A DNA stretch of 38,749 bases from Nocardiopsis listeri (GTDB taxonomy: Bacteria; Actinomycetota; Actinomycetes; Streptosporangiales; Streptosporangiaceae): the NCBI RefSeq assembly GCF_020741345.1, contig NZ_DYZD01000300.1, positions 1-38,749 of the forward strand, in the 5' to 3' direction. The position numbers and the translations under genes are program-made. Below are positions 1,452-18,818 of this stretch, one piece after another. The notes below the pieces were generated by a model, which did not search any database, had not been told where the DNA came from, and was given only the letters and a program-made list of their open reading frames with translations. Each line of letters opens with the position of its first letter. Within the stretch, counting starts at the first letter, position 1.

Positions 1452-1557
1452 CGGGATCCTCCTGGGGGTGGGGGTGAGGCGGGTTCGATGTCGATGGAGG
1501 TCCCGCCCACCCCCTGGGGAATCGGGAGGCGGGCGGGGCCGGGTCACGGCCCGCGGG

Positions 1558-2802
1558 TCAGGGACGCAGCAGGACGGGGAGTTCCTTGAGGCTGTTCACC
1601 AGGATGGAGGGGTGGTTCTCCAGCTCGGAGTCGTCGACGGCGAGCTTCAGGTCCGGGAAGCGCTCGAACAGCAGCGGGAGGGCGATCCGGCCCTCCATGC
1701 GCGCCAGGTGCGAACCCGGGCACACGTGCGGCCCGTGACCGAAGGAGATGTGGCGGCCCTTGTTCCGGGTCAGGTCGAAGGTGTCGGGGTGCGGTTCCTC
1801 GCCGTGCTCGGCGCGGTCGCGGCTGATGGCCCCGTAGGAGGTCATCAGCGCCTCGCCCTTCTTGATGGTGGTCCCGCCGATCTCGATGTCCTCGGTGGCG
1901 AAGCGGAAGACGAAGTTGGAGGTGGGCGGGTCGAAGCGCAGGGTCTCCTCCACCACCGTGTCCCAGCCGACCTCGCCCTTCTTGACCAGGTCGAACTGCT
2001 CGGGGTGGGCCAGCAGGGCGCGGACGGCGTTGCACAGCAGGTTGACGGTGGTCTCGTGGCCGGCGGCGACCACGACCTGCAGGGTGCCGCGGACCTCCAG
2101 GTCGGTGAGGGAGTCACCGTTCTCGCCCGCGTTGAGCAGCTCGGTGGTCAGGTCCTCGGCCGGGTTGGCGCGCTTGTGGGCGATCATGTCGTCGTAGTAG
2201 CGCTCCAGGGTCGTGTACGTGTGCACGAACTCCTCGGGCGTGGTGACCGCGCTGAAGAACTTCACGTACATGTCGCGGAGCCAGTCGTGTTCGGCGGCGT
2301 CCACACCGTAGAGCTCACCGATCACGTTCATCGGCAGTTTGAAGGCGAATTCGCCCTTGAGGTCCAGGCGACCGTCGGCCTTGGACTCCATGGCGTCCAA
2401 CAGCTCGGTGGTGATCTCCTCCACGCGCGGGCGCAGACGCTCGATACCGCGCGCGGAGAACGCCTTCGCGGTGAGCAGGCGCAGCCGCTTGTGCTCGGCC
2501 CCGTCGGTGCCGAGGAGGTTGGTGGGCGCGGGTGGGATGGTGCTGAGCAGCGGCCAGGACTCGGGGATGCGCCCCTGTTGGAAGTCCTCCCAGTGCGCGA
2601 TGTCCTTGACCAGGCGCGGGTCGTTGAGGGTGGCGCGACCGGCCTCGTGGTGGGTCACGGCCCAGGCGGACACTCCGCCGGGCAGGTCCACCCGGGCGAT
2701 GGGACCCGCGGCGTACAGGGCCTCACGTTCGGCGCGCAGGTTCTTGACGTAGGGGTCCAGAGTGATTGTTCCCGAGGATCCGTGCTGTACGGGGCAGGAC
2801 AT
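1558..2802 (-). CDS. Cytochrome P450 (CYP154-like), second P450 of conservon operon
   Basis: A 414-aa P450 with all canonical motifs: AGHETT in the I helix, ETLRF in the K helix and FGHGPHVCPG around the haem cysteine near the C-terminus. The ATG at 2802 overlaps the TGA of the upstream P450 by one base (TGATG), so the two are translationally coupled. It shares the N-terminal MSCPVQH and most of its sequence with the downstream P450 at 204-1451. In Streptomyces conservons a CYP157-type P450 is often paired with a CYP154 or CYP156 member. The gene order here (atypical P450, then this one) reproduces that pairing, with one extra copy added. Substrate and redox partners cannot be told from the sequence. 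Confidence 0.92.
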   Translation of the reverse strand: MSCPVQHGSSGTITLDPYVKNLRAEREALYAAGPIARVDLPGGVSAWAVTHHEAGRATLNDPRLVKDIAHWEDFQQGRIPESWPLLSTIPPAPTNLLGTDGAEHKRLRLLTAKAFSARGIERLRPRVEEITTELLDAMESKADGRLDLKGEFAFKLPMNVIGELYGVDAAEHDWLRDMYVKFFSAVTTPEEFVHTYTTLERYYDDMIAHKRANPAEDLTTELLNAGENGDSLTDLEVRGTLQVVVAAGHETTVNLLCNAVRALLAHPEQFDLVKKGEVGWDTVVEETLRFDPPTSNFVFRFATEDIEIGGTTIKKGEALMTSYGAISRDRAEHGEEPHPDTFDLTRNKGRHISFGHGPHVCPGSHLARMEGRIALPLLFERFPDLKLAVDDSELENHPSILVNSLKELPVLLRP

Positions 2803-4034
2803 CAGTGTGCTCCTCGTGGGGGTGCGGGGGTGAAGGTGACCGGAAGGGACGTGACGCCGCGAACCCAGGGGGACGGGCGCCACCGGAGCTCATGAGCGGG
2901 GATGGCGAGCTCCAGGTCGGGGAGTCGGTCCATGAGGACCTCGATGCCGGTGATCGTGATGGCCTCGGCTATCTCCTGGGCGGGGTAGGGACAGCCGTGC
3001 GCGCCGTGCGAGAACGACAGGTGGGCGTGGTTGCCGCGGTCACCGGCCGCGGTGGGCGCCGAACGCACGTCGGGGTCGTGGTTGGCGGCGGCCAGTCCCA
3101 GGAGGAGCATGTCGCCGCCGCGGATCGACGTTCCGCCGAGTTGCACGTCGTGTACGGCGTAGCGGGCGGCGTAGATCTGTGTGGGGGTGTCCTCCCACAG
3201 GACTTCGTTGAGGGCTTCACGGGCGCTGCTGCGCGCCCCGACGATCGAGGCCGCGAACCGGTCGTCGGTGAGCATCAGGCGCAGGGCGTTGCCCAACCAC
3301 TCGGAGGTGGGCTGGTTGCCGCCGCCCAGGACCACGATGAGTTCGAGGATGATCTCCTCGACCGTGTACCCGGCGGGGTGGGCGAGCATCCGGGAGACCA
3401 GGTCGGGCCCGGGCGCGGCGCGCCGGCGGGTCACGATGTCGGCCATGAGACCGATCAAGGACTCTCGCGCCTTCATCGTGTCCGGACCACCGTCGATCAT
3501 CGTCGTCATGACCTCGGCGAGGTGGTCGCCACCGGCGTCGTCGAGACCGTAGATCCACCCCAGGGCCTGGGCGGGCAGCCGGGCGGCGTAGGCGGTGCGC
3601 AGGTCCACGCCGTCGGAGGCGCAGAACTCGTCGATGAGCCGGTCGGCCATGCGGGTGACGTTGGTGCGCAGCTCGTGCGCGTCCACCGCCGCCAGCGCGT
3701 CGTTGACCGCCCCGGACCGACGCCGGTGTTCGGCGCCCTCGGCGTACAGGATGGTGGGGCTGCGCATGACCAGGGGGCTCAGCGGCCAGTCGGGCGGGAC
3801 CAGGTCCCAGGAGTTCCAGCGTTCGGAGCTGCGTTGGAAAACGTCGGTCTCGGTGAGGACCTGGTGGAGTTCCCGGTAGCCGACGACCAGCCACGCGGGG
3901 ACGCCGCCCTCCATGGTCACCGGGACCACCGGTCCGTGTTCGGCGCGCATGGCCCGGTACAGGGCGGCCGGGTCGGTCTGGAACTCGGGTCCGTGCAGGG
4001 GGACACGGCCCCCGACGATCGGGCAACCGTTCAT
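2802..4034 (-). CDS. Atypical cytochrome P450 (CYP157-like, ExxR lost), cvnE-type
   Basis: A 410-aa P450-fold protein encoded directly after the conservon GTPase, overlapping it by ATGA. The haem-ligand loop is present (FSHGAHGCPYP, Cys348), but two core motifs are altered. The K-helix ExxR reads EVLW (277-280), with Trp in place of the otherwise near-invariant Arg. The I helix reads GGGNQPT (237-243) instead of AGxxT. CYP157 of Streptomyces is the known family that lacks ExxR and is encoded in conservons, so this is most likely a CYP157 relative. Whether it oxidises a substrate, acts as a haem-sensing or regulatory subunit, or needs the adjacent P450 is open. The ATG at 4034 is fixed by the overlap. 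Confidence 0.9.
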   Translation of the reverse strand: MNGCPIVGGRVPLHGPEFQTDPAALYRAMRAEHGPVVPVTMEGGVPAWLVVGYRELHQVLTETDVFQRSSERWNSWDLVPPDWPLSPLVMRSPTILYAEGAEHRRRSGAVNDALAAVDAHELRTNVTRMADRLIDEFCASDGVDLRTAYAARLPAQALGWIYGLDDAGGDHLAEVMTTMIDGGPDTMKARESLIGLMADIVTRRRAAPGPDLVSRMLAHPAGYTVEEIILELIVVLGGGNQPTSEWLGNALRLMLTDDRFAASIVGARSSAREALNEVLWEDTPTQIYAARYAVHDVQLGGTSIRGGDMLLLGLAAANHDPDVRSAPTAAGDRGNHAHLSFSHGAHGCPYPAQEIAEAITITGIEVLMDRLPDLELAIPAHELRWRPSPWVRGVTSLPVTFTPAPPRGAH

Positions 4035-4657
4035 CGTCGGCCCTCCTTCACCAGGGTGCGGACGTGTTCGACCAGGGCGATGAGGACCCGCTTGGCCGAG
4101 GTCCGATCGCGGGCGTCGCAGCGCAGCAGGGGCACGGCCGGGTCCAGGTCCAGGGCGGCGCGCACGTCCTCCAGGGGGTGGTCGGCCTCACCGAAGTCGT
4201 TGTGCGCCACCACGAACGGGGTGCCCTGGGCCTCCAGACGGTCGATGGCGTAGAAGCAGTCCTCCAGGCGACGCGTGTCCACGAGGACCACCGCGCCCAG
4301 GGCACCGGAGAACAGGCGGTCCCACAGGAACCAGAAGCGTTGCTGGCCGGGGGCGCCGAACAGGTACAGGACCGAGGTGGTGTCCATGGTGATGCGCCCG
4401 AAGTCGAAGGCGACGGTGGTGGTGCCCTTGGCCTCGACCCCCTGGAGGTCGTCCACCGAAGCGCCCGCGCTGGTCATGGTCTCTTCGGTGGTCAGGGGCC
4501 TGATCTCGCTGACCGAACGCACCAACGTGGTCTTGCCGACCCCGAAACCACCGACCACGGCGAGCTTGAGGGCCTGGGCGGCGCCGGCGGGGAGTGGGGT
4601 GCCCGGGACGCCGAGGGTTCCGTCGGCGGGTGCGGGTTCAGAGGTCGTGGAGTGCAA
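4031..4657 (-). CDS. cvnD: Conservon small GTP-binding protein (CvnD)
   Basis: A 208-aa Ras/MglA-like GTPase of the DUF7/conservon type. After about 30 proline/alanine-rich residues come the P-loop GGFGVGKTT, a switch II segment with GAPGQQRFWF in place of a strict DxxG, and an N-D base-recognition segment (AHNDF). In Streptomyces conservons CvnD forms a membrane-associated signalling complex with CvnA, CvnB and CvnC, likened to eukaryotic G-protein systems. The start at 4657 overlaps the end of cvnC by 20 bases, and the stop overlaps the CYP157-like gene by four. No GEF or GAP is recognisable beyond the Roadblock partner. Confidence 0.93.
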   Translation of the reverse strand: MHSTTSEPAPADGTLGVPGTPLPAGAAQALKLAVVGGFGVGKTTLVRSVSEIRPLTTEETMTSAGASVDDLQGVEAKGTTTVAFDFGRITMDTTSVLYLFGAPGQQRFWFLWDRLFSGALGAVVLVDTRRLEDCFYAIDRLEAQGTPFVVAHNDFGEADHPLEDVRAALDLDPAVPLLRCDARDRTSAKRVLIALVEHVRTLVKEGRR

Positions 4658-4997
4658 CGAGCACCTTCTCCAACACGTCCGGGGAGGTGAACGGGTGCGC
4701 CGGCGAGGGCGCGGGGATCGGGTGGCGCGCGGTCACCCGACCGGTGTCGATGAGGTCGGTGAGCAGGATGCGCACGACCGTCAGGGGCAGCCCCAGGTGT
4801 GCGGCGACCTCGACCACCGACAGGGGGCTCGTGCACAGACGCAGGATGTGGGCGTGCTCGGACTGCGTTCCGGGGGTGGGTTCGCTCTCGGCCACGATGA
4901 GGGTCACCGCGTCCAAGGTGTCGTCGACGCCGCCGCTGCGCCCGGAGGTGATGACGTAGAGCCGGTCCGGGCCCTCCTGGCGTGGCGAGGGGCTCAC
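4638..4997 (-). CDS. cvnC: DUF742 conservon protein (CvnC)
   Basis: A 119-aa protein whose GTG start (4997) overlaps the cvnB stop as GTGA. The N-terminal part holds the DUF742 signature (RLYVITSGRS), and the C-terminal half is a winged-helix-like segment ending in VLEKVLVALHDL. The frame stays open further upstream, but those extra residues are the off-frame shadow of cvnB, so the GTG is preferred; the length fits the family (about 115-130 aa). Known role: a partner of CvnB and CvnD in the conservon complex. It may bind nucleic acid or mediate protein contacts through the winged helix (inference). Confidence 0.9.
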   Translation of the reverse strand: MSPSPRQEGPDRLYVITSGRSGGVDDTLDAVTLIVAESEPTPGTQSEHAHILRLCTSPLSVVEVAAHLGLPLTVVRILLTDLIDTGRVTARHPIPAPSPAHPFTSPDVLEKVLVALHDL

Positions 4998-5392
4998 GCG
5001 TTCCCGACCCGGGTCGGGCTGGACAGGTGTTCGCCCAACTGCTCGACCAGTTCGCTCATGTTGTGACCGACCAGTCCGGGGTCGGCCTCCTCGGAGGTGA
5101 TGACGGCCAGGTGGGCGCCATGACCCGCCTCCACGATGAACAGCAGCCCCCCGTAGAACTCGGCCATGGCCTGGCGCACCCCGCCCCCGCCGTCGCCGAA
5201 TTCCTTCGAGGCTCCGTGGGCCAGACTCTGCAGACCGGCGGCGATCGCGGCGAGGTGGTCGGCGCTGTCCGTACCCATGCCGGCGCTGTGACACAGCTTG
5301 AGTCCGTCGCGGGAGAGCACGAGCGCGTGGCGGGTGCCGGGGGTGCGTTCGAGGAGGCCTTCGAGCAGCCAGGTGAGCTTGTCGAGATCCAT
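4994..5392 (-). CDS. cvnB: Roadblock/LC7-domain conservon protein (CvnB)
   Basis: A 132-aa single-domain Roadblock/LC7 protein. It has an N-terminal amphipathic helix (LTWLLEGLLERTPG), the strand HALVLSRDGL, a helix with HLAAIAAGLQSLA, and a final strand pair (GLLFIVEAGHGAHLAVIT). These proteins regulate small GTPases, so CvnB is the expected partner of CvnD. Its ATG overlaps the cvnA stop by one base (TGATG) and its TGA overlaps the cvnC start. All neighbours agree with the classical cvnABCD order. Confidence 0.93.
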   Translation of the reverse strand: MDLDKLTWLLEGLLERTPGTRHALVLSRDGLKLCHSAGMGTDSADHLAAIAAGLQSLAHGASKEFGDGGGGVRQAMAEFYGGLLFIVEAGHGAHLAVITSEEADPGLVGHNMSELVEQLGEHLSSPTRVGNA

Positions 5393-6789
5393 CAGGTGTC
5401 CTTGGATGAGTCGGCCGGCCCGCGTACGGCGGAGCGGAACGCGCCGAACCCCTTCGGCGAGGTGGAGGGGCCGGTGGCCGCGGGGGCGCCGCTGTCGGCG
5501 GGGGCGGTGGTCCGGTTGCGTTCGGCTGCGGCGAGGGTCCGGCCGCGCCGACGCTGGGGCAATCCGTTCGCGAGCCGGGACACGGGCTCGTCGGTGATGG
5601 TGGATTCGTCGGGACCCGTCGACTCGACGGGGACCTCGGACGGGGTCGTTCGGGTGGTCTCCTGGACCGGGGTGCTCGGTACCGGGTTCGTCGGTGCCGG
5701 CGACGGTTTGATGAGGCGCTGCGGCAGTAGCAGGATCACCGCGGTGCCACCGCGGGACGAGGAGCGGTAGGCGACCGACAGCCCGTAGCGCCGGGCGAGC
5801 CTGCCGACGACCGCCAGACCGAGACGGGTTCCGGAGATCGTGGTGATGTCCGAAGCGCTCTCGACCGTCCGCCGGGCGCGGCGTAGGGCCTCGTCGCCCA
5901 TCACCAGGCCGCAGTCCTCGACCATGATGGCCACCCCCGCCTGGACCTCCTCCACGTGGACGTGGACCTCGGCGGTGGGCGGGGAGAACTTGGCGGCGTT
6001 GTCGAGCAGTTCGGCCAGGGCGTGGATGACCCCTTCGGCGGCGAACCCGGCCACGGCCAGTCGGGAGACGCTGTGGGTGCGCACCCGACGGTAGGCGCCG
6101 ATGCGTCCCATGGCGCCGCGCAGGATGCTCTCCATCGGGATGGAGCGGCTCCAGCGGCGACCGGAGCGGGCGCCGGTCAGGACGGCGATGCCGTCGGCCA
6201 TACGACCGGCCTGCGCGGTGGTGTGGTCCAGGTGCATGAGGTCGCCGAGGATCTCGTCCCCGCCTCCGTCGTCACCGTGCCGTTCCTGCATCGCGCGCAG
6301 GTCGGCGAGCATGGTGGTGGTCAGTGCCTGGACCCGGCCGGCAGCCGTGGCGCAGGCGGCCATCGCGGCGGAGCGGCGGCGTTCGGCGTCGGAGATCTCC
6401 GTGGCGGCCAGTCGCAGCACCTCGGAGGTGCCCGGGTCCGCCGGGACGGTGACGCGGTGCAGGGCGGTTTCGGCGGAGTCGCCCTGGCGCAGGTGTTCGA
6501 CCACGCGTGGCAGCGTCTTCGAGCCGAGGGCGGTGGTCTCGGCCCGGACCCGTTCCACCTCGGCGCGCAGTGCCTCGACGCGGCGGTCTCGTGCCGCCAC
6601 GAGCAGGGCGAGGGCGATCCCGAGCACGAGGGTGATCGCGCCGGCGGCGAGGACGGACGCCCGGGCCTCGGGATGGGCGGCCCACAGGGCCCACCCCCAT
6701 AACGGAAGCGAGGGGGCCAGGAGCAGGAGCCATCGCGGTGCGGTGGAACGCGACGGCGGTGTGCCGTCGTGGGGGATCTCAGCGGTCAT
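5392..6789 (-). CDS. cvnA: Conservon sensor histidine kinase-like protein (CvnA)
   Basis: A 465-aa membrane-anchored kinase. Two transmembrane helices sit near residues 19-38 and 46-66 with a very short external loop, so it probably senses within or at the membrane. A coiled linker follows, then a dimerisation helix with the candidate phospho-acceptor His189 (HLDHTT), and a HATPase_c domain with N-box ELLDNAAKF (Asn264), G1 box EDCGLVM and G2 box GTRLGLAVVGRL. The G1 box departs from DxGxG, so catalytic strength is uncertain. A proline/threonine-rich tail of about 100 residues ends the protein. It is the first gene of the operon; no response regulator accompanies it, as is normal for conservons. 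ATG at 6789 with GGAG upstream. Confidence 0.92.
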   Translation of the reverse strand: MTAEIPHDGTPPSRSTAPRWLLLLAPSLPLWGWALWAAHPEARASVLAAGAITLVLGIALALLVAARDRRVEALRAEVERVRAETTALGSKTLPRVVEHLRQGDSAETALHRVTVPADPGTSEVLRLAATEISDAERRRSAAMAACATAAGRVQALTTTMLADLRAMQERHGDDGGGDEILGDLMHLDHTTAQAGRMADGIAVLTGARSGRRWSRSIPMESILRGAMGRIGAYRRVRTHSVSRLAVAGFAAEGVIHALAELLDNAAKFSPPTAEVHVHVEEVQAGVAIMVEDCGLVMGDEALRRARRTVESASDITTISGTRLGLAVVGRLARRYGLSVAYRSSSRGGTAVILLLPQRLIKPSPAPTNPVPSTPVQETTRTTPSEVPVESTGPDESTITDEPVSRLANGLPQRRRGRTLAAAERNRTTAPADSGAPAATGPSTSPKGFGAFRSAVRGPADSSKDT

Positions 6790-10110: not shown

Positions 10111-11100
10111 TCAGGTGATGACCCGCTGGACCTCCAGCATGCGTTCCACCGTGCGGAACCCGAAGAGGTCGTTGACCGCACGCATCGGGGTGTTGGCGGG
10201 ATCCACCCAGGTACGGACCCACTTCGCCTCGGGAACGTCCCTGGAGAGCGCTTGGAGGTTGCGCCGCTTGAGCGCCACACCCAACCTGTTGCCCCGATGG
10301 GCGCGCATCACCAACGTGTCGTCCTGGTAGACCTCACCCTCTCCTTCCGTCGGGACCATCATCAGGCTGTACCCGGACCACTCCCCCGACCCGGCCCGCG
10401 CGACGGAGACGATGGTGGTGTACCCCTGGTCGGCACGGCGCAGGTCCTCCTTCCGGATCCGGTCGGCGTCCCACACCTGCGGTTCGGTGTCGAGCCCGCC
10501 CGTGGGCACGTCACGCTCCATCGCGGTGCGCATCCGCGCGTAGTCCTCCAGCAGTTCCTCCGGACAAGGACCCGTCCAGGTGAGCGTTCGGTGTTCACCG
10601 GTCACCTCGGGCAGGGCGGCCAACCGTTGCTCCGGGACGGGAAGGTCCAGCACCTGGTAGTCCTCCTCGTGCACGACGTCGAAGCCATGGGACCGGGCGA
10701 ACAGGGCACCCGGCCAAGCGTCCGGGTCGCACCCCCCGGGGACGTAGACCTCACCGGTCGCGGTGGTGCGCCCCTCCTCTTCCATGACCTTCGTGGCCAG
10801 TTCGAGCAGTCGTCCGCCCAGGCCCCTGCCCCGGTGTTCCGGGACCACCGAGACGTCCACCTCGGCCAGGTGCCGGTTCTCCAGGTCCGGAAGGTCGATG
10901 AGGAGGGTGCCCACGGTGCGTTCGTCCTCCACCGCGGCGTACAACCTGTGGTGCCGGTCCTCGCGCGGGGCGACCATCCCCTTGAGGTCGGGAAAGCCCA
11001 TAACGGCGGCCTCCGCGCGGCCGGCCGTCGCCCCCTCGACCAGGGCCGTGTGCCAGGCACGCAGGGCGGACTCGTCCGTGGCGTCGATCGGGTTGATCAT
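10111..11100 (-). CDS. Tandem GNAT-domain acetyltransferase
   Basis: A 329-aa protein with two GNAT folds, as in mycothiol synthase (MshD) and related double-GNAT enzymes. The N-terminal domain carries an acetyl-CoA loop RGRGLGGRLLELA (motif A). The C-terminal domain has AHRGNRLGVALKRRNLQAL and the typical N-x-x-M-x-x-V-N-x-x-x-G-F-R end (NTPMRAVNDLFGF). It is the last gene of the accessory operon, 33 bases after the MFS gene. It could acetylate the cluster product or a toxic intermediate (self-resistance or tailoring) (inference). The substrate is unknown. ATG at 11100. Confidence 0.85.
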   Translation of the reverse strand: MINPIDATDESALRAWHTALVEGATAGRAEAAVMGFPDLKGMVAPREDRHHRLYAAVEDERTVGTLLIDLPDLENRHLAEVDVSVVPEHRGRGLGGRLLELATKVMEEEGRTTATGEVYVPGGCDPDAWPGALFARSHGFDVVHEEDYQVLDLPVPEQRLAALPEVTGEHRTLTWTGPCPEELLEDYARMRTAMERDVPTGGLDTEPQVWDADRIRKEDLRRADQGYTTIVSVARAGSGEWSGYSLMMVPTEGEGEVYQDDTLVMRAHRGNRLGVALKRRNLQALSRDVPEAKWVRTWVDPANTPMRAVNDLFGFRTVERMLEVQRVIT

Positions 11101-11133: not shown

Positions 11134-12441
11134 TCAGGCGGGTTCGGAAGCCTTGCCGGCTCCCTCCGCGACGGGTTCACCGAAGCCGCGCAACCGCGCA
11201 GAGGTCATGGCCAGTAGCGCCGCGGCCACCCCCAGCAGGCCCGCGAAGACCAGGAAGAGGGCGGTGGCGCCGGTCTTTTCCTCACCCAGCAAGGTCACCA
11301 TGGTGTCCGCGCCGGTATCGGTGAACAGCGGTGTCAGTACGTAGTCCACGACCGGGCCGGCGATGAGCAGGCCCAGGGGCAGGGACGACTGCGCGAGGAG
11401 GCGACGGGCCCCGAAGACGCGGCCCTGTTGCCGCTCCGGCACGTGGGACTGCCAGATCGCCTGGTAGGCGGAGTTGACCGCAGGAAGCACGGCACCGGCC
11501 ACCAGGGAGGAGGCGATCCACAGCCACGGGGTCCAGGACAGACCCAGCAACAGGGGTCCGGCGACCGAACCGATCGCCATGCCGCCCAGCACGAGGGTCA
11601 TCCGTTGGAACCGGTCGCCCACCGCACTGACGACCAGGGCTCCCAGCACTCCGCCCGCGCCTCCGGCCGCCAGGACCACCCCCAGGAGAGCCTGGTCGTC
11701 CCCGCTGCGCAACATGATCAACGGGGTGGTCAGGGCGTAGGAGATCGCCCCGGAGAAGTTGAGCACGAAGAACAGCAGGAGTAGGAGCACCAGGGGCCGG
11801 CTGCGGAAGATGTAGGTGAACCCGAACAGCAGGTCCGCCCGGAACACCACCCACGAACGCCGCTGCTCTCCCTCGGCCACGGCCGGTCGAGGGGTGCGGA
11901 CCATCAGCAGGACCAGCGCGGCGAAGACGAAGGTCACCAGGTCCAGGAGCAGGATCATCGACAGGTCGGTCAGCGCCAGCAGGACACCCCCCAGGGCGGG
12001 GGCGAGGATCTCCGACCCGGGCGCGGCCAGACTGATCATTCCGTTGGCGCGAACCAGCCGTTCCTCCACCACCAGGAGTGGGACCAACGCCATGTAGGCC
12101 ACCAGGTGCAGGGACTCCATCACCCCTTCGAACACGGCGATGACGTACAGGTGCCAGATCTCCAGGTTCCCCGTGAGATAGAGCGTCAGAACGGTGGACG
12201 TGGTGATGGCGAGGGCGCCGTCACCGACCAGGACGGCCACCCGTGGCCCGATGCGGTCCACGAGTGCACCGGCGATCGGGGCCATGGCCAGGCCGGGGGC
12301 CAGGGAGAGCAGTGTGAGCATCGCGAACAGGGTCGCCGAACCGGATTCCGCCCACACCCACAGGGTGATGGCGAACCAGGCCGTGCCCGAGCCGATCGCC
12401 GACATGAGCTGGGTCGACCACACCAGGGAGAAACGTCGCAT
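11134..12441 (-). CDS. MFS efflux transporter
   Basis: A 435-aa major facilitator protein with about 12 hydrophobic segments, beginning FSLVWSTQLMSAIGSGTAWFAI. It carries the DRIGPR loop motif between helices 2 and 3 and a second DRFQR loop in the C-terminal half. It resembles the MacB/TetV-like drug-efflux branch (MFS_3). The start is 6 bases after the 2OG oxygenase stop and 33 bases precede the GNAT gene, so it belongs to the accessory operon and is the only exporter there. No peptidase-containing ABC transporter is present, so any leader removal must be done by another protein. Confidence 0.88.
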   Translation of the reverse strand: MRRFSLVWSTQLMSAIGSGTAWFAITLWVWAESGSATLFAMLTLLSLAPGLAMAPIAGALVDRIGPRVAVLVGDGALAITTSTVLTLYLTGNLEIWHLYVIAVFEGVMESLHLVAYMALVPLLVVEERLVRANGMISLAAPGSEILAPALGGVLLALTDLSMILLLDLVTFVFAALVLLMVRTPRPAVAEGEQRRSWVVFRADLLFGFTYIFRSRPLVLLLLLFFVLNFSGAISYALTTPLIMLRSGDDQALLGVVLAAGGAGGVLGALVVSAVGDRFQRMTLVLGGMAIGSVAGPLLLGLSWTPWLWIASSLVAGAVLPAVNSAYQAIWQSHVPERQQGRVFGARRLLAQSSLPLGLLIAGPVVDYVLTPLFTDTGADTMVTLLGEEKTGATALFLVFAGLLGVAAALLAMTSARLRGFGEPVAEGAGKASEPA

Positions 12442-12447
12442 ACCGCC

Positions 12448-13002
12448 CTAGACCGCCTCGCCGGAGAGGTCGTCGCCACGATGCGGCAACGGCGGGATCG
12501 TCACGAGGGTGTAGCGCTCCTCGCAGGCCACGGGATCGACCCAGTGCCAGGCCTGGGGGTCGTGCTCGACGAAGGTGCCGGCACGGTCGGGGACGAACAC
12601 CATGGTCTCGGGGTCGTGCTGGGCGTTGAGCCCATCCGTCCCCGAAGTGGTGAGCATGTACAGGCCCTGGCGCAGTGAGTCCCGGTGCGGCAGGACGTAG
12701 TCTCCCCGGTCGTACCTGTTGACCTGAACGTAGTAGTCCCTCTTCGGCGTCCCCTCGGGGGTGATGGCGGCGAAGATCGCCGCCCTGAGGTCCTCGGGCA
12801 TCCAGGCGGACTGGAGGACGTGATAGCGGTCGTCGTCCTCGTACTCGGAGTCCCGGTAGGGGTCGAAGGGGTCTGTTCCGGCCGGCCGGGGCGGGGCCGC
12901 GGGGTCGGGGTGATCGGCGAACAGGTGTCGGTAGCGGCGGGCGAGGGAGACGATCCCCGCGCAGTCGGCCACCACGTCCGGAACCACGGTCAACGGCCTC
13001 AT
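12448..13002 (-). CDS. 2-oxoglutarate/Fe(II)-dependent oxygenase-like protein
   Basis: A 184-aa compact double-stranded beta-helix protein. The facial triad is visible as His106-x-Asp108 (LPHRDS) and His153 (WHWVDPV), with Arg163 (ERYTLV) placed to bind 2-oxoglutarate. The preceding strand is YYVQVNRYDRGDYV. Such small oxygenases hydroxylate or desaturate amino acids or peptides. The ATG at 13002 overlaps the stop of the paralogous upstream gene (ATGA), so the two are probably made in equal amounts. Within the cluster it would oxidise the peptide or an amino-acid unit (inference). Confidence 0.8.
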   Translation of the reverse strand: MRPLTVVPDVVADCAGIVSLARRYRHLFADHPDPAAPPRPAGTDPFDPYRDSEYEDDDRYHVLQSAWMPEDLRAAIFAAITPEGTPKRDYYVQVNRYDRGDYVLPHRDSLRQGLYMLTTSGTDGLNAQHDPETMVFVPDRAGTFVEHDPQAWHWVDPVACEERYTLVTIPPLPHRGDDLSGEAV

Positions 13003-13466
13003 CGCACTCCCATCACAACGCTGTACCTGGGCGCACCTCGCACGGGACTCACCCACGCCCACGACCCCGGCGGCAGGAGCAGACCCGTGCCCACCCGATC
13101 CAGGACACGCTCGAAGCGCCCTCCGATCCAGGCGGTGACCCCGTCGACCTCGGAGTCGCTCAGGGGGAAGGTCAGCTCCCAGTCACCGGCCACGGTGTCG
13201 CCCACCCGACGGGGCAGGGTGAAATCGCCGACGTCGTGACGTTGCACCCGAACCGTCGCCGGGTCGGGTGTGCCGGGCAGTGACGAGGCGACGGCGACGA
13301 GGCGATCACGCAGACCCGGCTGGTCGACGGCCAGGTCGGTGTACCGGGACCGGGCCCCGGTGAGGTCCTGCGGTGCCGTGACCGGTAGACCTTCCAGCGC
13401 CGCTCTCACCTCCTGCGGCAGGGTGTGGGCGACGGGTACCTCCGTCGGCCCTTCGGTGAGGATCAT
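12999..13466 (-). CDS. Degenerate 2OG-oxygenase paralogue lacking iron ligands
   Basis: A 155-aa protein whose C-terminal half aligns by eye with its downstream neighbour: RVQRHDVGDFTLPRRV corresponds to QVNRYDRGDYVLPHRD, and WAWVSP...RYSVV to WHWVDP...RYTLV. In these positions the ligands are replaced: Arg86 for His106, Val88 for Asp108 and Ala137 for His153, while Arg147 is kept. It therefore cannot bind Fe(II) in the usual way. It may be a structural or substrate-binding partner of the active oxygenase (inference). ATG at 13466 with AAGGAG upstream; the stop overlaps the next start by four bases. Confidence 0.75.
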   Translation of the reverse strand: MILTEGPTEVPVAHTLPQEVRAALEGLPVTAPQDLTGARSRYTDLAVDQPGLRDRLVAVASSLPGTPDPATVRVQRHDVGDFTLPRRVGDTVAGDWELTFPLSDSEVDGVTAWIGGRFERVLDRVGTGLLLPPGSWAWVSPVRGAPRYSVVMGVR

Positions 13467-13477
13467 CGGTTTCTCCT

Positions 13478-14986
13478 TCACTCCAGATCGGTCAGGTCGA
13501 CGGGGACGGCGTCGGGGTCGGAACGGCGCAGGGAATCGATGTCGGGGTGGGCCGCCACCTCCATCAACAGCTCCACCACCGCCGCGCGCCCCCACCCGGC
13601 CCGTGCGCCCATCGCCACCTTGAACAGGCCCCGCCCTTCCTTGAGGGAGGGGATGATGCACTCGAAGCGGTGGGCGCGGAAACCGAAGCTCGACCCGTGC
13701 GAGAAGGGCAGTCCTCGACGACGCGCCTGGGAACGCAACACACCGAGCAACAGTCCGTGGTGCTCCAGCGTGTCCTCACGCAGGTGGCACACGACGAACG
13801 GAGCCTGCGCCCAAGGGGCGGCGGGGCCCTCGGCCAGCGAGGGATGGGCGATGCGGGTGAAGAGTCGTCCCGGCCCCGCCAGGTCGGCGAGCACTCGCGC
13901 GGTCAGCGCGTTGTTGCGCAGGACCGCGAGCGCGTGGTCACGGGCGGCCGCCCGATCCAGGACGAACGGGGCGCTGAGCACCGAGAGGGCTTCCAGGGAC
14001 AGACCGGATCCCACGACGGTGCGCATCTTGCGCAGGTACGTGGCCAGATCGGCGGCGGGGGGAAGTGCCGGATCGGACCGGCGTGCGTACAGGGAGGCCA
14101 CCCCCAGGTTGCCGAGTTCGAGCCCTCGCTGGTCGAGTTTGAGCCCGGAGCGGACCTCGACGACCAGGACGCCCGGGTCGCCGACGGCCTCCACGAACCG
14201 TTCCCTCGGCCACACCGGCGAGACGAGGGTGGAGTCCACCACGACCAGGCCGGGACGGCTCCCCCGCCGCCCCCGCCAGGCGCCCAGCAGCGCCGGCAGG
14301 TCGAGTGCGTCCAGTTCCCACTCGTAGCGCACGGGTTCGATGAACAGCACGTCCACCTCACCTGTGAGGAGACAGGACCGCAGTTCCTCTTGGGTGTCGG
14401 CGCGTCGACAGCGCAGGCCGTCGTCGGAGACCAGGTCGAAAAGGACTCCGGTCTCGTAGTAGGCACCCCACATCAGCAGGTTCAAAGGGCGGTCGGCGGT
14501 CTGCCGGATCAGACTCCGGTAGCACTGGAGGAGCCCGGCGATGGACGCCATACCGCTGGAGTACACGACGTGCGCCACCTCGTGGTGATCGAGCTCGGCG
14601 TCCTGGGCCGCGAGCCGTTCCTCCAGGGAGTGGCATTCGATGTTGCGTTCGTAGCTGTGCGTGGAGGGAGGCCCGAAGGGCAACGTCATCGGGGTTCCCA
14701 GGGGCGGTGACTTGTAGCGCGGATCCGTGAATCCGTGGGCGTGGCGGATCCACATCACCCGCAGGTCCGCCTCCGCCCGGTCCATCTCCGCCTCTGCCTC
14801 GGGTCCCTGCCGTCCGGTCAGGGAGGTGACCCGTTCACGCCACCCTCGGATCGACTCGGTCGGATTCCCCTCCGCGTCCGGGGGAAAGAGCGCGTCGGCC
14901 AGCCCGAGCAGGGCGGTGACGTCGTCGTGTGCGGTCATCGGGGCCGCGCCCGTGCGTCCCTCGGTCGCGTCCATGGTCCCGGTCAT
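13478..14986 (-). CDS. Fold-type I PLP-dependent enzyme (Cys/Met-metabolism-like)
   Basis: A 502-aa protein with the layout of the cystathionine-synthase/lyase group. After about 130 N-terminal residues comes a PLP-phosphate loop VVYSSGMASI (141-150), then a stacking aromatic segment (WGAYYET), an IEP strand, Asp251 in VVVDSTL to pair with the PLP nitrogen, and the Schiff-base Lys283 in RSGLKLDQ. A C-terminal small domain follows. Reactions in this family are beta/gamma eliminations or replacements; the actual substrate is unknown. The ATG at 14986 overlaps the upstream stop (ATGA), and the protein is longer than the 380-400 aa typical of the group. It is in the middle of the accessory operon. 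Confidence 0.75.
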   Translation of the reverse strand: MTGTMDATEGRTGAAPMTAHDDVTALLGLADALFPPDAEGNPTESIRGWRERVTSLTGRQGPEAEAEMDRAEADLRVMWIRHAHGFTDPRYKSPPLGTPMTLPFGPPSTHSYERNIECHSLEERLAAQDAELDHHEVAHVVYSSGMASIAGLLQCYRSLIRQTADRPLNLLMWGAYYETGVLFDLVSDDGLRCRRADTQEELRSCLLTGEVDVLFIEPVRYEWELDALDLPALLGAWRGRRGSRPGLVVVDSTLVSPVWPRERFVEAVGDPGVLVVEVRSGLKLDQRGLELGNLGVASLYARRSDPALPPAADLATYLRKMRTVVGSGLSLEALSVLSAPFVLDRAAARDHALAVLRNNALTARVLADLAGPGRLFTRIAHPSLAEGPAAPWAQAPFVVCHLREDTLEHHGLLLGVLRSQARRRGLPFSHGSSFGFRAHRFECIIPSLKEGRGLFKVAMGARAGWGRAAVVELLMEVAAHPDIDSLRRSDPDAVPVDLTDLE

Positions 14987-16104
14987 GTGTTCCGCCCTCC
15001 TTCGGCGCGCACGACCTCCTGATGCGGCGGGCCCCATCCGTGCAGGTCGCGCATCATGCTCGCGGTGTAGGCCCCGGACGCGTTGAACACCAGACGGTCC
15101 CCGGGCCGAGGGTCGGACAGCGACACCTCCTCGGCCAACACGTCGTTCTCGTAGCAGGTCACCCCACCGATCAGGTGGGGACGCCCCGGCCCGTCCCGTT
15201 CGGGCAGGCGCGCCACCACCCTCGGGCTCCCCCAGGTGAACAGGTTCCATCCGGAGGCGTCGGCCACGGCGTATCCACGGCCGTCGGGGAACCCATCGAC
15301 GGAGCGCAGGCGGACCACGAGGTAGCCGGCCAGCGCGGTCGTCAACATGCCGGGTTCCAGGAGCACGCGCACGGGAGCACCGGCGAGACGTTCGGCGACG
15401 CGCTTCCAGGCCCGCCGGGCCTGCTGCCGGTCGGTGTACAGCGTGGTCAGACCGCCGCCCAGGTTGAGTTCGCGCACTTGTGGGAAGGCGCGCAGGCAGG
15501 TGGTCAGGGCCGACGTCAGCAGGTCGGCCCGGTCGGGTGTCCCGATCTCGCCGCTGTGCACGTGCAGTCGTACGACGCGTGTGTCGGTCCCGGCCAGGAG
15601 CCGGTGGAGTTCGGGGTCGGCGGGATCGACACCGAACCTGCTCGCGCGGCGCCCGGAGGTCCGGTCCTGTTCGGCCATGGGCACGCGCAGACGCAGTCCG
15701 ATCTCCCGTGGCGAGGGTCGGGTCTGCAGGAGTGAGCGCAGCTGGTCGACGCCATCGACGTCGACCAAGGCCCCCTGCTCGGCCATGGCGGCGAGCCGGT
15801 CGCCGGTCAGTCCGGGCCCGGTGACGCTGATCGGGTCCATGCCGGCTTCCCGGGCCGCGCGGTACTCGGCGGGTGAGGCGACGTCCGCGCCCACGCCGAG
15901 GTCGGCCAGGTGGCGCAGCAACGGCGGGAAGCGGTTGGCCTTGAGGGCGAACAGCAGGACGCTCTTCGGGAACGGAGCGGTGTCCTCGCGCAGTTCCCGG
16001 ACCGTGGCCGTGACCGCGTCCAGGTCGTACAGGAGTGCGGGGGTGGTGACGGTCCGGGCGGACCGCAGGATCGCCTCGCCGGGTGTGGAGGAGCCCATCG
16101 TCAC
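14983..16104 (-). CDS. Alanine-racemase-fold PLP decarboxylase-like protein (DapDC/ODC type), copy 1
   Basis: A 373-aa fold-type III PLP protein. The N-terminal TIM barrel carries the Schiff-base Lys55 in FALKANRFP, followed by GVGADVASPAEY, SRFGVDP, HVHSGE, a glycine-rich LNLGGGL and EPG. The C-terminal beta domain holds GVTCYENDVL and GAYT. In ornithine and diaminopimelate decarboxylases the corresponding C-(D/E)SxD segment contributes Cys and Asp across the dimer interface. Here the Cys is kept and the context is changed to CYEND. The start is a GTG at 16104 overlapping the arginase-like stop (GTGA), or an ATG two codons in. A paralogue is encoded at 17345-18547. Confidence 0.82.
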   Translation of the reverse strand: MTMGSSTPGEAILRSARTVTTPALLYDLDAVTATVRELREDTAPFPKSVLLFALKANRFPPLLRHLADLGVGADVASPAEYRAAREAGMDPISVTGPGLTGDRLAAMAEQGALVDVDGVDQLRSLLQTRPSPREIGLRLRVPMAEQDRTSGRRASRFGVDPADPELHRLLAGTDTRVVRLHVHSGEIGTPDRADLLTSALTTCLRAFPQVRELNLGGGLTTLYTDRQQARRAWKRVAERLAGAPVRVLLEPGMLTTALAGYLVVRLRSVDGFPDGRGYAVADASGWNLFTWGSPRVVARLPERDGPGRPHLIGGVTCYENDVLAEEVSLSDPRPGDRLVFNASGAYTASMMRDLHGWGPPHQEVVRAEGGRNT

Positions 16105-17348
16105 GCACCCCCTTCCCGATGGCCGATGGCCGAGTCCAGGGCCCGCAACAGCAGGTCGGCGACGATCAGCCCGTCCGTCTCCCCCTCATGGGGCAGGAAC
16201 TCGACCACGTCGATCCCGACGATGCGTCGGGCCGAGCACAGGTCGGTCAACAACCCGACCAGTTCGGCGTGGGTGAAACCTCCGGGCAGGGGCGTGCCCG
16301 TGGCGGAGAGCACCGAGGGGTCCAGCGCGTCCACGTCGATGGTCAGGTGGTAGGGCAGGGAGTCGGGGAGTTCGGCGAGGATCTCGCCGAGCGGGGTGCT
16401 CAGCGCCGACCTTCCGGGCCAGCGGCGCAGTGTGTCGTCCGGCCGTGCGGGCGGATCCTCCAGTTGGCGCAGGCCGAACTGGGCGAGGCGGACCACCCGA
16501 GGATCGCCTACCACCCAGTCCATGACGTTTCCGTGGTGGCAGTGGAGTTCGGCGTCGTCGTGGCGGGGACGGGCGTAGTCGCCGTGGGCGTCGATGTGCA
16601 GGACGCCGAGATCGCCGTGGACCTCGGCCAGACCTCGGACGATGGGCAACGTGACGGAGTGGTCGCCGCCCAGGATCACCGGGAGGCGGCCGTGCCCGCT
16701 GAGGCGGCCCACCACGTTCTCCAGCACCGACCAGGTGGGCCCGGCGGAACGGTGCACGTTGGTGGTCACGTCGCCGATGTCCGCCAGACGTACTCCGGCC
16801 AACACACGTCTCCCGGTCACCGGGTCCACGGCACCGGACGGGCCGTCGACGGTGTCCCGGTAGCGGAACAGGGCGCCTCCGGTACGTCGTAACTGGGCGG
16901 GACCGAACCTGCTGCCGGGCCGGTGCGAGGCCCCCAGGTCGTAGGGCATCCCGAGGAAGACGACATCGCAGGACTCACCGCGCAGTGCCTCGGCCAGGGT
17001 GAGGACCGGGGCGCCGAACATGCCGCCTCGCCCGGCGGGGGTGGGGACTCCGTCCGGGTCGTGTCGTCTTATGAGGCCTCGTTCTCCCAGGGCCGTGACC
17101 AGGGCGCGCAGGTGGGATCGGTCGGTTCCTTCGCCTTGGGCAAGGGTGGCCAGGGTGCGGGGAACGGCGAAGGCGGCGAGCAGGTCGGCGGTGACCGGAC
17201 CGACCTCCAGTTCCCACCCCTCACGGGTGTGCCACACGGTGGTGCGACCGTCCTGCGAGCCCCGCAGGGCCAGCAGGGGTTCGGTGGCCAAGAGGGTGTC
17301 GTCGGTGATCGGAGGGGCCTGCATCGCCCCGGGGCCGGAGTCGTTCAC
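16101..17348 (-). CDS. Agmatinase/arginase-family ureohydrolase with N-terminal RRE/PqqD-like domain
   Basis: A 415-aa two-domain protein. Residues about 115-410 form a ureohydrolase with every manganese ligand in place: GGDH (His230), DAHGD (Asp253, His255, Asp257) and the DVDALDP motif (Asp338, Asp340), plus GIDVVEF (Glu383). The family hydrolyses guanidino groups to amine and urea. Residues about 15-97 are not part of known arginases. They form a strand-rich start (TTVWHTREGWELEVG) and then a winged-helix pattern (PVTADLLAAF...HLRALVTALGERGLIRR) like the PqqD/RiPP-recognition fold. This suggests leader-guided action on a peptide arginine. GTG start at 17348, overlapping the upstream stop. 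The domain junction uses the rare codons ATA-AGA (residues 93-94). Confidence 0.82.
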   Translation of the reverse strand: MNDSGPGAMQAPPITDDTLLATEPLLALRGSQDGRTTVWHTREGWELEVGPVTADLLAAFAVPRTLATLAQGEGTDRSHLRALVTALGERGLIRRHDPDGVPTPAGRGGMFGAPVLTLAEALRGESCDVVFLGMPYDLGASHRPGSRFGPAQLRRTGGALFRYRDTVDGPSGAVDPVTGRRVLAGVRLADIGDVTTNVHRSAGPTWSVLENVVGRLSGHGRLPVILGGDHSVTLPIVRGLAEVHGDLGVLHIDAHGDYARPRHDDAELHCHHGNVMDWVVGDPRVVRLAQFGLRQLEDPPARPDDTLRRWPGRSALSTPLGEILAELPDSLPYHLTIDVDALDPSVLSATGTPLPGGFTHAELVGLLTDLCSARRIVGIDVVEFLPHEGETDGLIVADLLLRALDSAIGHREGGA

Positions 17349-18547
17349 GCGGTGGCCCCCGCGGTGGTGAGCGCGGCTTCGGCGTCGATCATGTGCTCAC
17401 CGTCGAAGAGGTGTTCACGTGGCGGGGGGATGCGGTTGAACCACCGGGCGTTGGTGATGGTGTAGGCGCCGGTCGCGGTGATGACCAGGCGGTCGCCCGC
17501 ACGGCAGTGGGGCACCTCCAGGGTGGTGCGAGCGGCGGTGGGGGTGGCGCCGAAGAAGTCGTTCTCGTAGAGGGTGCAGCCTGCCAGGAGGGCGGGAGCG
17601 CCGGGCCGACGTCCGTCCAGGGACAGGACCTGGGGCCGGTTGTGCCAGGGGGCGAGGTTCCAGGCGGAGGCGTCCAGGGTCACGACGCGGGTGTCGAGGA
17701 CCGGATGGTGCTCCTCCACCGACCGCACCCTGGTGAGGAGATACCCGTAGGGGGTGAGCAGCGCACCTCCGGGCTCGAAGCGCAGGGAGATCGAGCGACC
17801 GGTACGTTCGCGCCAGCCCGTGACGAGCGCGGCGACGTCGCCGAACGCGTCGATGGCGCTCGCCCGATCCCGGTAGAGGTGGAAGAACCCGCCTCCGAGG
17901 TCGATGGTGTGCACCTCGGGCAGGTGCTCGGCGACGGTGAGGAGGTAGCGGGTCTTGTAACGCAGGGAGTCCGGGGTCATCTGGCCGGTGTGGACGTGCA
18001 GCCGGGTGGGCCTCAGCCGATGTCGTTCGAGCACCCGTGTGAGTTCGGGGTCGGCGGGGCGGACTCCGAAGCGGCTGTCTCCGGCGAAGGTCGCCGTGTC
18101 CTCCAGGGCCTCGGGGAGGTCCACTCGCACACGTATCCCCACCTCGTCCCCGGGGCGATGCCGTCCGTAGGAGTCGAGTTGATCGAGGGAATCACAGTCC
18201 AGGGTGATCCCTCGCGCGGCCAGGGCGTCGAAGTCGGTTTCGGTGAAAACGGGGCCCGTCGCGGAGATCTCGGCGAAGCCGGCGTTCACGGCCAGGTCGA
18301 GTTCTCCGGGGGAGGCGACGTCGCAGCCGAGTCCGAGCGCGGCCATCTCCCCGAGCACGGCGGGGGTGTGGCACGCCTTGAGTGCCAGGTTGAGTCCTGC
18401 GTCGGGGATGAGGGCGACGTCGTGGCGCATCGCCTCCACACCCGCACGAATACCGGGCAGGTCGTAGATCAGCGCGGGGGTGTCGAGATCCTCGGCGAGC
18501 GCGAAGAGGCGTTCGCTCGGTGGGGTGAACAGGGGGGCTGGTGGCAT
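17345..18547 (-). CDS. Alanine-racemase-fold PLP decarboxylase-like protein, copy 2
   Basis: A 400-aa paralogue of the protein at 14983-16104, with Lys57 (NLALKACH) as Schiff-base lysine, CDVASPGEL, SRFGVRPADPEL, HVHTGQM, IDLGGGFF, EPGG and the C-terminal GCTLYENDFF and GAYT. The residue matching the catalytic Cys of ornithine/diaminopimelate decarboxylase is Leu here, whereas copy 1 keeps Cys. These enzymes build active sites from two chains, so the copies could form a heterodimer with one full site (inference). ATG at 18547 with GAAGGA upstream; the frame continues upstream but only as an off-frame shadow of the precursor gene. It is the first enzyme gene after the putative precursor. Confidence 0.82.
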   Translation of the reverse strand: MPPAPLFTPPSERLFALAEDLDTPALIYDLPGIRAGVEAMRHDVALIPDAGLNLALKACHTPAVLGEMAALGLGCDVASPGELDLAVNAGFAEISATGPVFTETDFDALAARGITLDCDSLDQLDSYGRHRPGDEVGIRVRVDLPEALEDTATFAGDSRFGVRPADPELTRVLERHRLRPTRLHVHTGQMTPDSLRYKTRYLLTVAEHLPEVHTIDLGGGFFHLYRDRASAIDAFGDVAALVTGWRERTGRSISLRFEPGGALLTPYGYLLTRVRSVEEHHPVLDTRVVTLDASAWNLAPWHNRPQVLSLDGRRPGAPALLAGCTLYENDFFGATPTAARTTLEVPHCRAGDRLVITATGAYTITNARWFNRIPPPREHLFDGEHMIDAEAALTTAGATA

Positions 18548-18635: not shown

Positions 18636-18818
18636 CTAGTTGGCGCGGGGGCGGCTGCCGCCGAGGGTGCCGAGGTCCATGCTGATCTCGCGGACGTCTG
18701 CACCGCCGATCTCACGGATGGACTCGTCGATGACGGCCTGTTCGCTCCAGGCCTCGCCGGTGAAGTTGGCGTCGAACTCCTTTTCGAGGTCGGCCAGCTT
18801 CGTCTGCAAAGTGGGCAT
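18636..18818 (-). CDS. Putative RiPP precursor peptide (60 aa)
   Basis: A 60-aa acidic peptide of unknown family, first gene of the accessory operon. The N-terminal 50 residues are helical and rich in Asp/Glu (LQTKLADLEKEFDANF, then AVIDESIREIGGADV), like a leader. The C-terminus is MDLGTLGG followed by SRPRAN, so a double-Gly at 53-54 precedes a six-residue tail with Arg56 and Arg58. It has no Cys and a single Trp24. AAAGGA lies about 7 bases before the ATG. The RRE-like domain fused to the arginase and the modifying enzymes downstream make a ribosomal precursor the best reading. A small non-substrate partner protein is the alternative. The core boundary is inferred only from the Gly-Gly. 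Confidence 0.72.
   Translation of the reverse strand: MPTLQTKLADLEKEFDANFTGEAWSEQAVIDESIREIGGADVREISMDLGTLGGSRPRAN

What the first reader, a model, noticed from the sequence alone, without database searches (positions are those of the whole stretch)
12448..13466. Co-translated active and iron-ligand-less 2OG oxygenase pair
The upstream protein aligns with the downstream oxygenase, but its His-x-Asp...His triad is Arg-x-Val...Ala, while the 2OG-binding Arg is kept. The genes overlap by ATGA, so equimolar synthesis is likely. This suggests an obligate heterodimer in which a pseudo-oxygenase binds substrate or regulates its partner.
Basis: partly seen in the sequence, partly recalled or inferred. 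Interest (0 to 1): 0.72.

Follow-up and report, generated by a model that had tools for sequence, protein, structure and literature searches.

The report
Live-dead oxygenase pair, peptide cluster
Two overlapping bacterial genes encode related oxygenases, one with an intact iron site and one with it destroyed; the pair recurs in seven genomes inside what looks like an undescribed gene cluster for making a modified peptide, so the dead copy is probably a needed partner rather than a broken gene.

Summary
Observation confirmed. Pseudo-oxygenase (12999-13466, minus) and live oxygenase (12448-13002, minus) overlap by ATGA and are homologous (profile E 2.9e-17); both models have the jelly-roll fold of prolyl hydroxylases. 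The pair, genes always overlapping, occurs in 7 genomes: the window, Nocardiopsis coralli, Thermoactinospora, Nonomuraea, two of Catenulispora's order, one Solirubrobacteraceae MAG. In 7 of 7 the live protein keeps His-x-Asp...His...Arg; in 7 of 7 the pseudo lacks the Asp and distal His but keeps the Arg. It is under purifying selection (dN/dS about 0.30), and one branch separates all pseudos from all lives. All 7 genomes also carry a short precursor peptide (core DL....GSRP; duplicated in the MAG), two LysA-like proteins, an arginase-like protein and an orphan PLP-type protein: probably an undescribed RiPP-type pathway. Best reading: a heteromeric peptide hydroxylase with a non-catalytic substrate-binding or scaffold subunit, comparable to fungal TlxI/TlxJ and to the tandem domains of OGFOD1/Tpa1. 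Complex formation, equimolarity and activity are untested: the obligate heterodimer is plausible, not shown. New variant of a known kind.

The parts
12999..13466 (-). pseudo-2OG oxygenase, 155 aa; R86-x-V88...A137 in place of the triad, Arg147 kept
   Evidence: fold
12448..13002 (-). live 2OG oxygenase, 184 aa; H106-x-D108...H153, R163
   Evidence: fold; PF13640 below cutoff
12999..13002 (-). ATGA stop/start overlap of the two genes
18636..18818 (-). putative RiPP precursor, 60 aa, C-terminal core ISMDLGTLGGSRPRAN
   Evidence: homologues in 7 of 7 genomes; two core copies in L067
17345..18547 (-). LysA-like fold-type-III PLP protein a; PLP Lys kept, Leu in place of the catalytic Cys
16101..17348 (-). 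arginase/agmatinase-family protein (PF00491) with a ~110-residue N-terminal extension
14983..16104 (-). LysA-like fold-type-III PLP protein b; PLP Lys and Cys kept
13478..14986 (-). orphan protein, probably PLP fold-type-I-like (Lys in SGLKLDQ); no Pfam hit
11134..12441 (-). MFS exporter
   Evidence: PF07690; MFS homologue beside the cluster in 5 other genomes
10111..11100 (-). GNAT acetyltransferase, possible accessory or self-protection gene
   Evidence: PF00583 in 5 of 5 GNATs tested next to the cluster

Best explanation
The two genes encode a heteromeric peptide oxygenase in an undescribed RiPP-type pathway. The downstream protein is the Fe(II)/2OG catalyst; the upstream paralogue no longer binds iron and serves as a non-catalytic partner that packs on the catalyst and helps to hold the precursor peptide, perhaps while still binding 2OG or another carboxylate through its kept Arg-x-Ser/Thr. 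The likely target is the conserved core motif DL-x-x-x-x-G-S-R-P of the 60-aa precursor (hydroxylation at Pro57 or at Arg/Orn56 is my guess), with the arginase-like protein turning Arg into Orn and the PLP proteins acting before or after. Shown: homology, triad loss, conserved gene overlap, co-conservation with precursor and maturases, selection on the pseudo-protein. Inferred: the complex, its role in substrate binding, the substrate and the chemistry.
For: Pair adjacent with overlapping genes in 7 of 7 genomes that have either member at strong scores: overlaps of 4, 4, 4, 4, 13, 13 and 8 bases. Live triad and Arg intact 7 of 7; pseudo lacks Asp and distal His 7 of 7, keeps Arg 7 of 7. Tree: one branch (97/96) separates the 7 pseudos from the 7 lives, so the dead state has been inherited since before the genera split. 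Pseudo dN/dS 0.31, 0.30, 0.30 in three species pairs. Models: pseudo pLDDT 76.7, best match a P4H at Z 12.0; live pLDDT 86.3, PHD2 at Z 15.3 and bacterial P4H at Z 14.8, enzymes of peptidyl substrates. Gene order around the pair differs between lineages, yet the pair stays together. Precursor, LysA pair, arginase and orphan PLP protein present in all 7 genomes. Precedents: TlxI/TlxJ (PMC12141560, section read) and OGFOD1/Tpa1 (PMC4396695 and PMC5802723, passages).
Against: No complex was predicted or measured. The pseudo evolves about twice as fast as the live protein (0.30 against 0.14-0.17). Four of 7 pseudos keep the proximal His. The N-terminal 40 residues of the pseudo model have pLDDT 55-65, and Foldseek also lists cupins near its top. 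Shared gene order alone could reflect shared pathway membership. No RRE or PqqD-like hit was found. The MAG locus is split over two contigs and its precursor starts at a contig edge.
Confidence: 0.62

Rival explanations
1. The pseudo-protein is a separate 2OG or carboxylate sensor, or a leader-peptide guide, that does not bind the live enzyme stably but delivers the precursor to one or several maturases.
For: Arg-x-Ser/Thr is kept in 7 of 7 pseudos without the iron ligands; no recognisable RRE domain was found in the arginase N-terminus, so some other protein may bind the leader.
Against: Gene overlap is always with the live oxygenase, even where the gene order around the pair changed. In T. 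rubra and N. jabiensis the pseudo start also overlaps the end of LysA_b, so overlap is not unique to the live gene.
Confidence: 0.2
2. The pseudo-protein has an iron-independent catalytic role of its own, using another residue set in the jelly-roll pocket.
For: Pseudo-specific invariant residues (E25, L45, T111, G115, R120, S140).
Against: The residues that replace the triad differ between lineages, which argues against a conserved new active site there.
Confidence: 0.07
3. The pseudo-gene is a decaying duplicate without function.
For: It evolves faster than its partner.
Against: Open frame in 7 of 7 genomes, dN/dS about 0.30 in three independent pairs, one old split.
Confidence: 0.03
4. The pseudo-protein is a 2OG halogenase-type enzyme in which the Asp is replaced to make room for chloride.
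For: The Asp is replaced in 7 of 7, by Gly or Ala in 2 of 7.
Against: Halogenases keep both His ligands (recalled); the distal His is absent in 7 of 7 and the proximal one in 3 of 7.
Confidence: 0.01

Closest known systems
TlxI/TlxJ (and TlxA/TlxC) heterodimeric nonheme iron oxygenases, fungal talaromyolide pathway
   Same: Two paralogous 2OG-oxygenase-fold proteins from one biosynthetic cluster, one catalytically incompetent; with the partner kcat/Km is 1.63 against 0.02 per min per uM alone, and the partner's loop is needed for substrate binding (PMC12141560, section read).
   Different: Fungal meroterpenoid substrate; TlxI lacks the 2OG-binding Arg, whereas here the Arg is kept and the iron ligands are lost. 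Here bacterial, overlapping genes, peptide-type cluster. Complex not shown here.
OGFOD1 / Tpa1p ribosomal prolyl hydroxylases
   Same: A catalytic jelly-roll domain packed on a second jelly-roll domain that lacks a metal site, acting on a peptidyl substrate (PMC4396695, PMC5802723, passages).
   Different: One polypeptide, live domain first, in eukaryotes; here two genes, dead one first.
Peptide arginases (OspR family, pfam12640; KgrD, pfam00491)
   Same: An arginase-type maturase in a cluster with a precursor peptide that has a conserved Arg (PMC12703449 introduction).
   Different: The protein here matches PF00491 like KgrD, not pfam12640, and has an N-terminal extension without a Pfam match; partners and precursor motif differ.
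Microcin C MccE
   Same: Fold-III PLP decarboxylase in a peptide pathway (decarboxylase role in one passage of PMC8503589; its GNAT domain and immunity role are recalled).
   Different: No adenylating enzyme was seen in this cluster; the LysA-like protein is duplicated here.

Membership tests
Fe(II)/2OG oxygenase (live protein) | His-x-Asp...His facial triad and 2OG-binding Arg-x-Ser/Thr on a jelly-roll fold | tested here: met
   7 of 7 rows; VIA Z 15.3 to PHD2, 14.8 to bacterial P4H
Fe(II)/2OG oxygenase (live protein) | Fe- and 2OG-dependent turnover | not testable with these tools
   needs protein
Fe(II)/2OG oxygenase (pseudo protein as an active member) | intact facial triad | tested here: not met
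   Asp and distal His absent in 7 of 7
2OG-oxygenase fold (pseudo protein) | jelly-roll fold and homology to a live member | tested here: met
   hhalign E 2.9e-17; VIA Z 12.0 to P4H, 124 residues, rmsd 2.8
TlxI/TlxJ-like heterodimeric oxygenase | physical heterodimer with the inactive paralogue needed for full activity | not testable with these tools
   no complex prediction or bench work available
TlxI/TlxJ-like heterodimeric oxygenase | inactive subunit lacks the 2OG-binding Arg | tested here: not met
   Arg147 column kept in 7 of 7
2OG halogenase | Asp replaced by Gly/Ala with both His kept (recalled) | tested here: not met
   distal His absent in 7 of 7 pseudos
RiPP gene cluster | short precursor gene with leader and conserved core, co-conserved with modifying enzymes | tested here: met
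   7 of 7 genomes; invariant R43, I45, D48, L49, G54-S55-R56-P57; duplicated core in the MAG
RiPP gene cluster | ribosomal product with the predicted modifications | not testable with these tools
   needs mass spectrometry
RiPP gene cluster | RRE/PqqD-like leader-binding domain (common, not universal) | tested here: inconclusive
   no such Pfam hit in six arginase N-termini
Peptide arginase pfam12640 | pfam12640 match | tested here: not met
   only PF00491 matched at E up to 1

The most novel reading that the evidence does not exclude
A new RiPP class in which two different enzyme types each work as a pair of one complete and one crippled paralogue: the 2OG oxygenases (iron site lost in one) and the LysA-like PLP proteins (catalytic Cys replaced by Leu in one, in all seven genomes, while the PLP Lys stays in both). 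Each pair would make an asymmetric dimer with one working site and one peptide-docking site, acting on an -SRP- core.
Probability: 0.35. Interest if true: 0.78.

Novelty: new variant of a known kind. Interest (0 to 1): 0.6.

Why it matters
Heteromeric 2OG oxygenases with an inactive paralogous subunit are known from very few systems; the review read here calls the fungal TlxI/TlxJ and TlxA/TlxC pairs unprecedented. A compact bacterial pair of 155 and 184 residues, with a likely 60-residue peptide substrate encoded nearby, would be a tractable model for asking why a dead active site is kept. The surrounding gene set also points to an uncharacterised peptide natural product with unusual PLP and arginase chemistry.

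Tried and rejected
Decaying duplicate: rejected. Halogenase reading: rejected on the missing distal His. Pfam and NCBIfam on the pseudo protein: no family. PDB sequence profile search: pseudo nothing useful (best E 1.3); live weak, 9ei6 at E 0.016. Orphan PLP-type protein: no PDB relative by sequence (one chance-level row), 1 of 6 members with weak PF01053. RRE in the arginase N-terminus: no hit.

Breadth: the pseudo query in 341 family genomes gave 30 genomes at E<=0.01, of which 4 carry the true protein (E<=1.7e-20); the other 26, best E 9.0e-5, were treated as noise and not examined one by one. Live profile: 1 of 396 (phylum sample), 1 of 249 (class of the MAG), 2 of 197 (order of Catenulispora), 1 of 394 (class sample). 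Orphan PLP profile: 4 of 338 family genomes, the same four. These sets overlap.

Papers: ten searches. None of the listings I saw described this gene set; PMC12703449 has no occurrence of Nonomuraea, Catenulispora, Nocardiopsis, decarboxylase, 2-oxoglutarate or pyridoxal. PMC13174530 was only checked for five terms. Subscription journals are largely outside the library, so absence from print is not shown.

Full report
What is there. On the minus strand, the ORF 12999-13466 (155 aa) ends in the ATGA that starts the ORF 12448-13002 (184 aa). The proteins are homologous by local alignment (score 97; 1000 shuffles, mean 31, maximum 64), by tblastn in the own genome (38%, E 3.9e-6) and by profile-profile comparison (98.9%, E 2.9e-17). 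The live one has H106-x-D108...H153 and R163; the pseudo has R86-x-V88...A137 and R147.

Not a one-off. The genes overlap in 7 of 7, by 4, 4, 4, 4, 13, 13 and 8 bases. All 7 live proteins keep the triad and Arg; all 7 pseudos lack the Asp and the distal His; 3 of 7 also lack the proximal His; all 7 keep the Arg, followed two residues on by Ser or Thr. The replacements differ between lineages, which fits released constraint on metal binding rather than a new shared active site. A single branch (support 97/96) parts pseudos from lives (the tree tool warned of long branches, the two MAG rows above all). Nei-Gojobori dN/dS for the pseudo is 0.308, 0.296 and 0.300 in three species pairs, for the live 0.142, 0.136 and 0.166. 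So the dead copy is old, kept and under selection, though it changes about twice as fast as its partner.

Fold. With 14 sequences each, the pseudo model has mean pLDDT 76.7 (N-terminal 40 residues weaker) and the live model 86.3. The best VIA matches of the pseudo are a bacterial prolyl 4-hydroxylase (Z 12.0, rmsd 2.8, 124 residues) and others within 1 Z unit, a few cupin-type chains among them; those of the live are PHD2 (Z 15.3) and the same bacterial P4H (Z 14.8). Both are jelly-roll proteins; the live one sits near enzymes that hydroxylate peptidyl substrates. A shared fold does not prove that substrate class.

Setting. Upstream on the same strand lie a 60-aa ORF (18636-18818), two LysA-like proteins (17345-18547 and 14983-16104), a PF00491 arginase-like protein (16101-17348) and an orphan protein with a likely PLP lysine (13478-14986); downstream an MFS exporter (11134-12441) and a GNAT (10111-11100). 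tblastn finds the small ORF, both LysA-like proteins, the arginase, the orphan and the MFS with the pair in the five other complete loci. In the MAG the pair ends one contig, and the small ORF, LysA_a, GNAT, arginase, LysA_b and orphan lie on another; that these contigs are neighbours is inference. Gene order differs (precursor-LysA_b-pseudo-live-LysA_a-arginase-orphan in four; precursor-LysA_a-arginase-LysA_b-orphan-pseudo-live in the window and N. coralli), but pseudo and live stay together.

The small ORF looks like a RiPP precursor: acidic N-terminal part, then a core with R43, I45, D48, L49 and G54-S55-R56-P57 invariant in 7 of 7. In the MAG the core unit (DL..MGGSRPR) is present twice (34-nt repeat, 82% identical, spacing 48), as in multi-core precursors. 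The arginase-like protein and the conserved Arg suggest an Arg-to-Orn step, by analogy with KgrD (PF00491) of enteropeptins (PMC12703449 introduction).

A second unequal pair. In LysA_a the residue aligned with the Cys of the Cys-x-x-x-Asp motif of E. coli LysA is Leu, in 6 of 6 rows of the alignment and in the MAG copy; LysA_b has Cys in all of these. The PLP Lys is kept in 12 of 12 aligned rows. Because fold-III enzymes build their sites across a dimer interface (recalled), a mixed dimer is possible; this is a lead only.

Mechanism. I take the pair to be a heteromeric peptide hydroxylase. The closest worked example is fungal TlxI/TlxJ, where the incompetent paralogue supplies a loop for substrate binding and kcat/Km rises from 0.02 to 1.63 per min per uM (PMC12141560, section read); the same review notes that in other oxidative RiPP enzymes (MNIOs) the non-catalytic partner more likely guides the precursor peptide. 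OGFOD1 and Tpa1 carry a second, metal-free jelly-roll domain packed on the catalytic one. The arrangement here is the reverse of TlxI in one respect: the Arg is kept and the iron ligands are gone. My likelihoods: physical partnership 0.65-0.7; pseudo as substrate-binding or scaffold rather than sensor or guide about 0.6; hydroxylation within the SRP core about 0.35.

Verdict. Observation confirmed; interpretation partly supported; a new variant of a known kind, in a gene cluster for which ten paper searches of one open library gave no description that I saw.

Noticed in passing
window 17345-18547 and 14983-16104: Two LysA-like paralogues; one has Leu instead of the catalytic Cys in all seven genomes seen, while the PLP Lys stays in both. 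A second unequal pair in the same cluster.
   Followed up: partly
L067:1-249: MAG precursor with two copies of the core unit (LDLVVMGGSRPR, LDLNLMGGSRPR) followed by a short charged tail.
   Followed up: partly
window 13478-14986: Orphan protein family with an SGLKLDQ motif, no Pfam family and no PDB relative by sequence; in 338 family genomes it occurs only in the four that have this cluster.
   Followed up: partly
window 16101-17348: About 110-residue N-terminal extension on the arginase-like protein, conserved in the homologues and without a Pfam match of the RRE type; could be a leader-binding domain.
   Followed up: partly
window 204-6789: Three P450-like ORFs (by eye), a PF03029 GTPase-type protein and an HATPase_c protein in a row, resembling an actinobacterial conservon (label recalled; for the two Pfam hits, none for the ORF at 2802-4034).
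   Followed up: no
window 10111-11100; L036, L037, L040, L067: GNAT proteins lie next to the cluster in all five loci tested, in different positions and strands; possible self-protection.
   Followed up: partly
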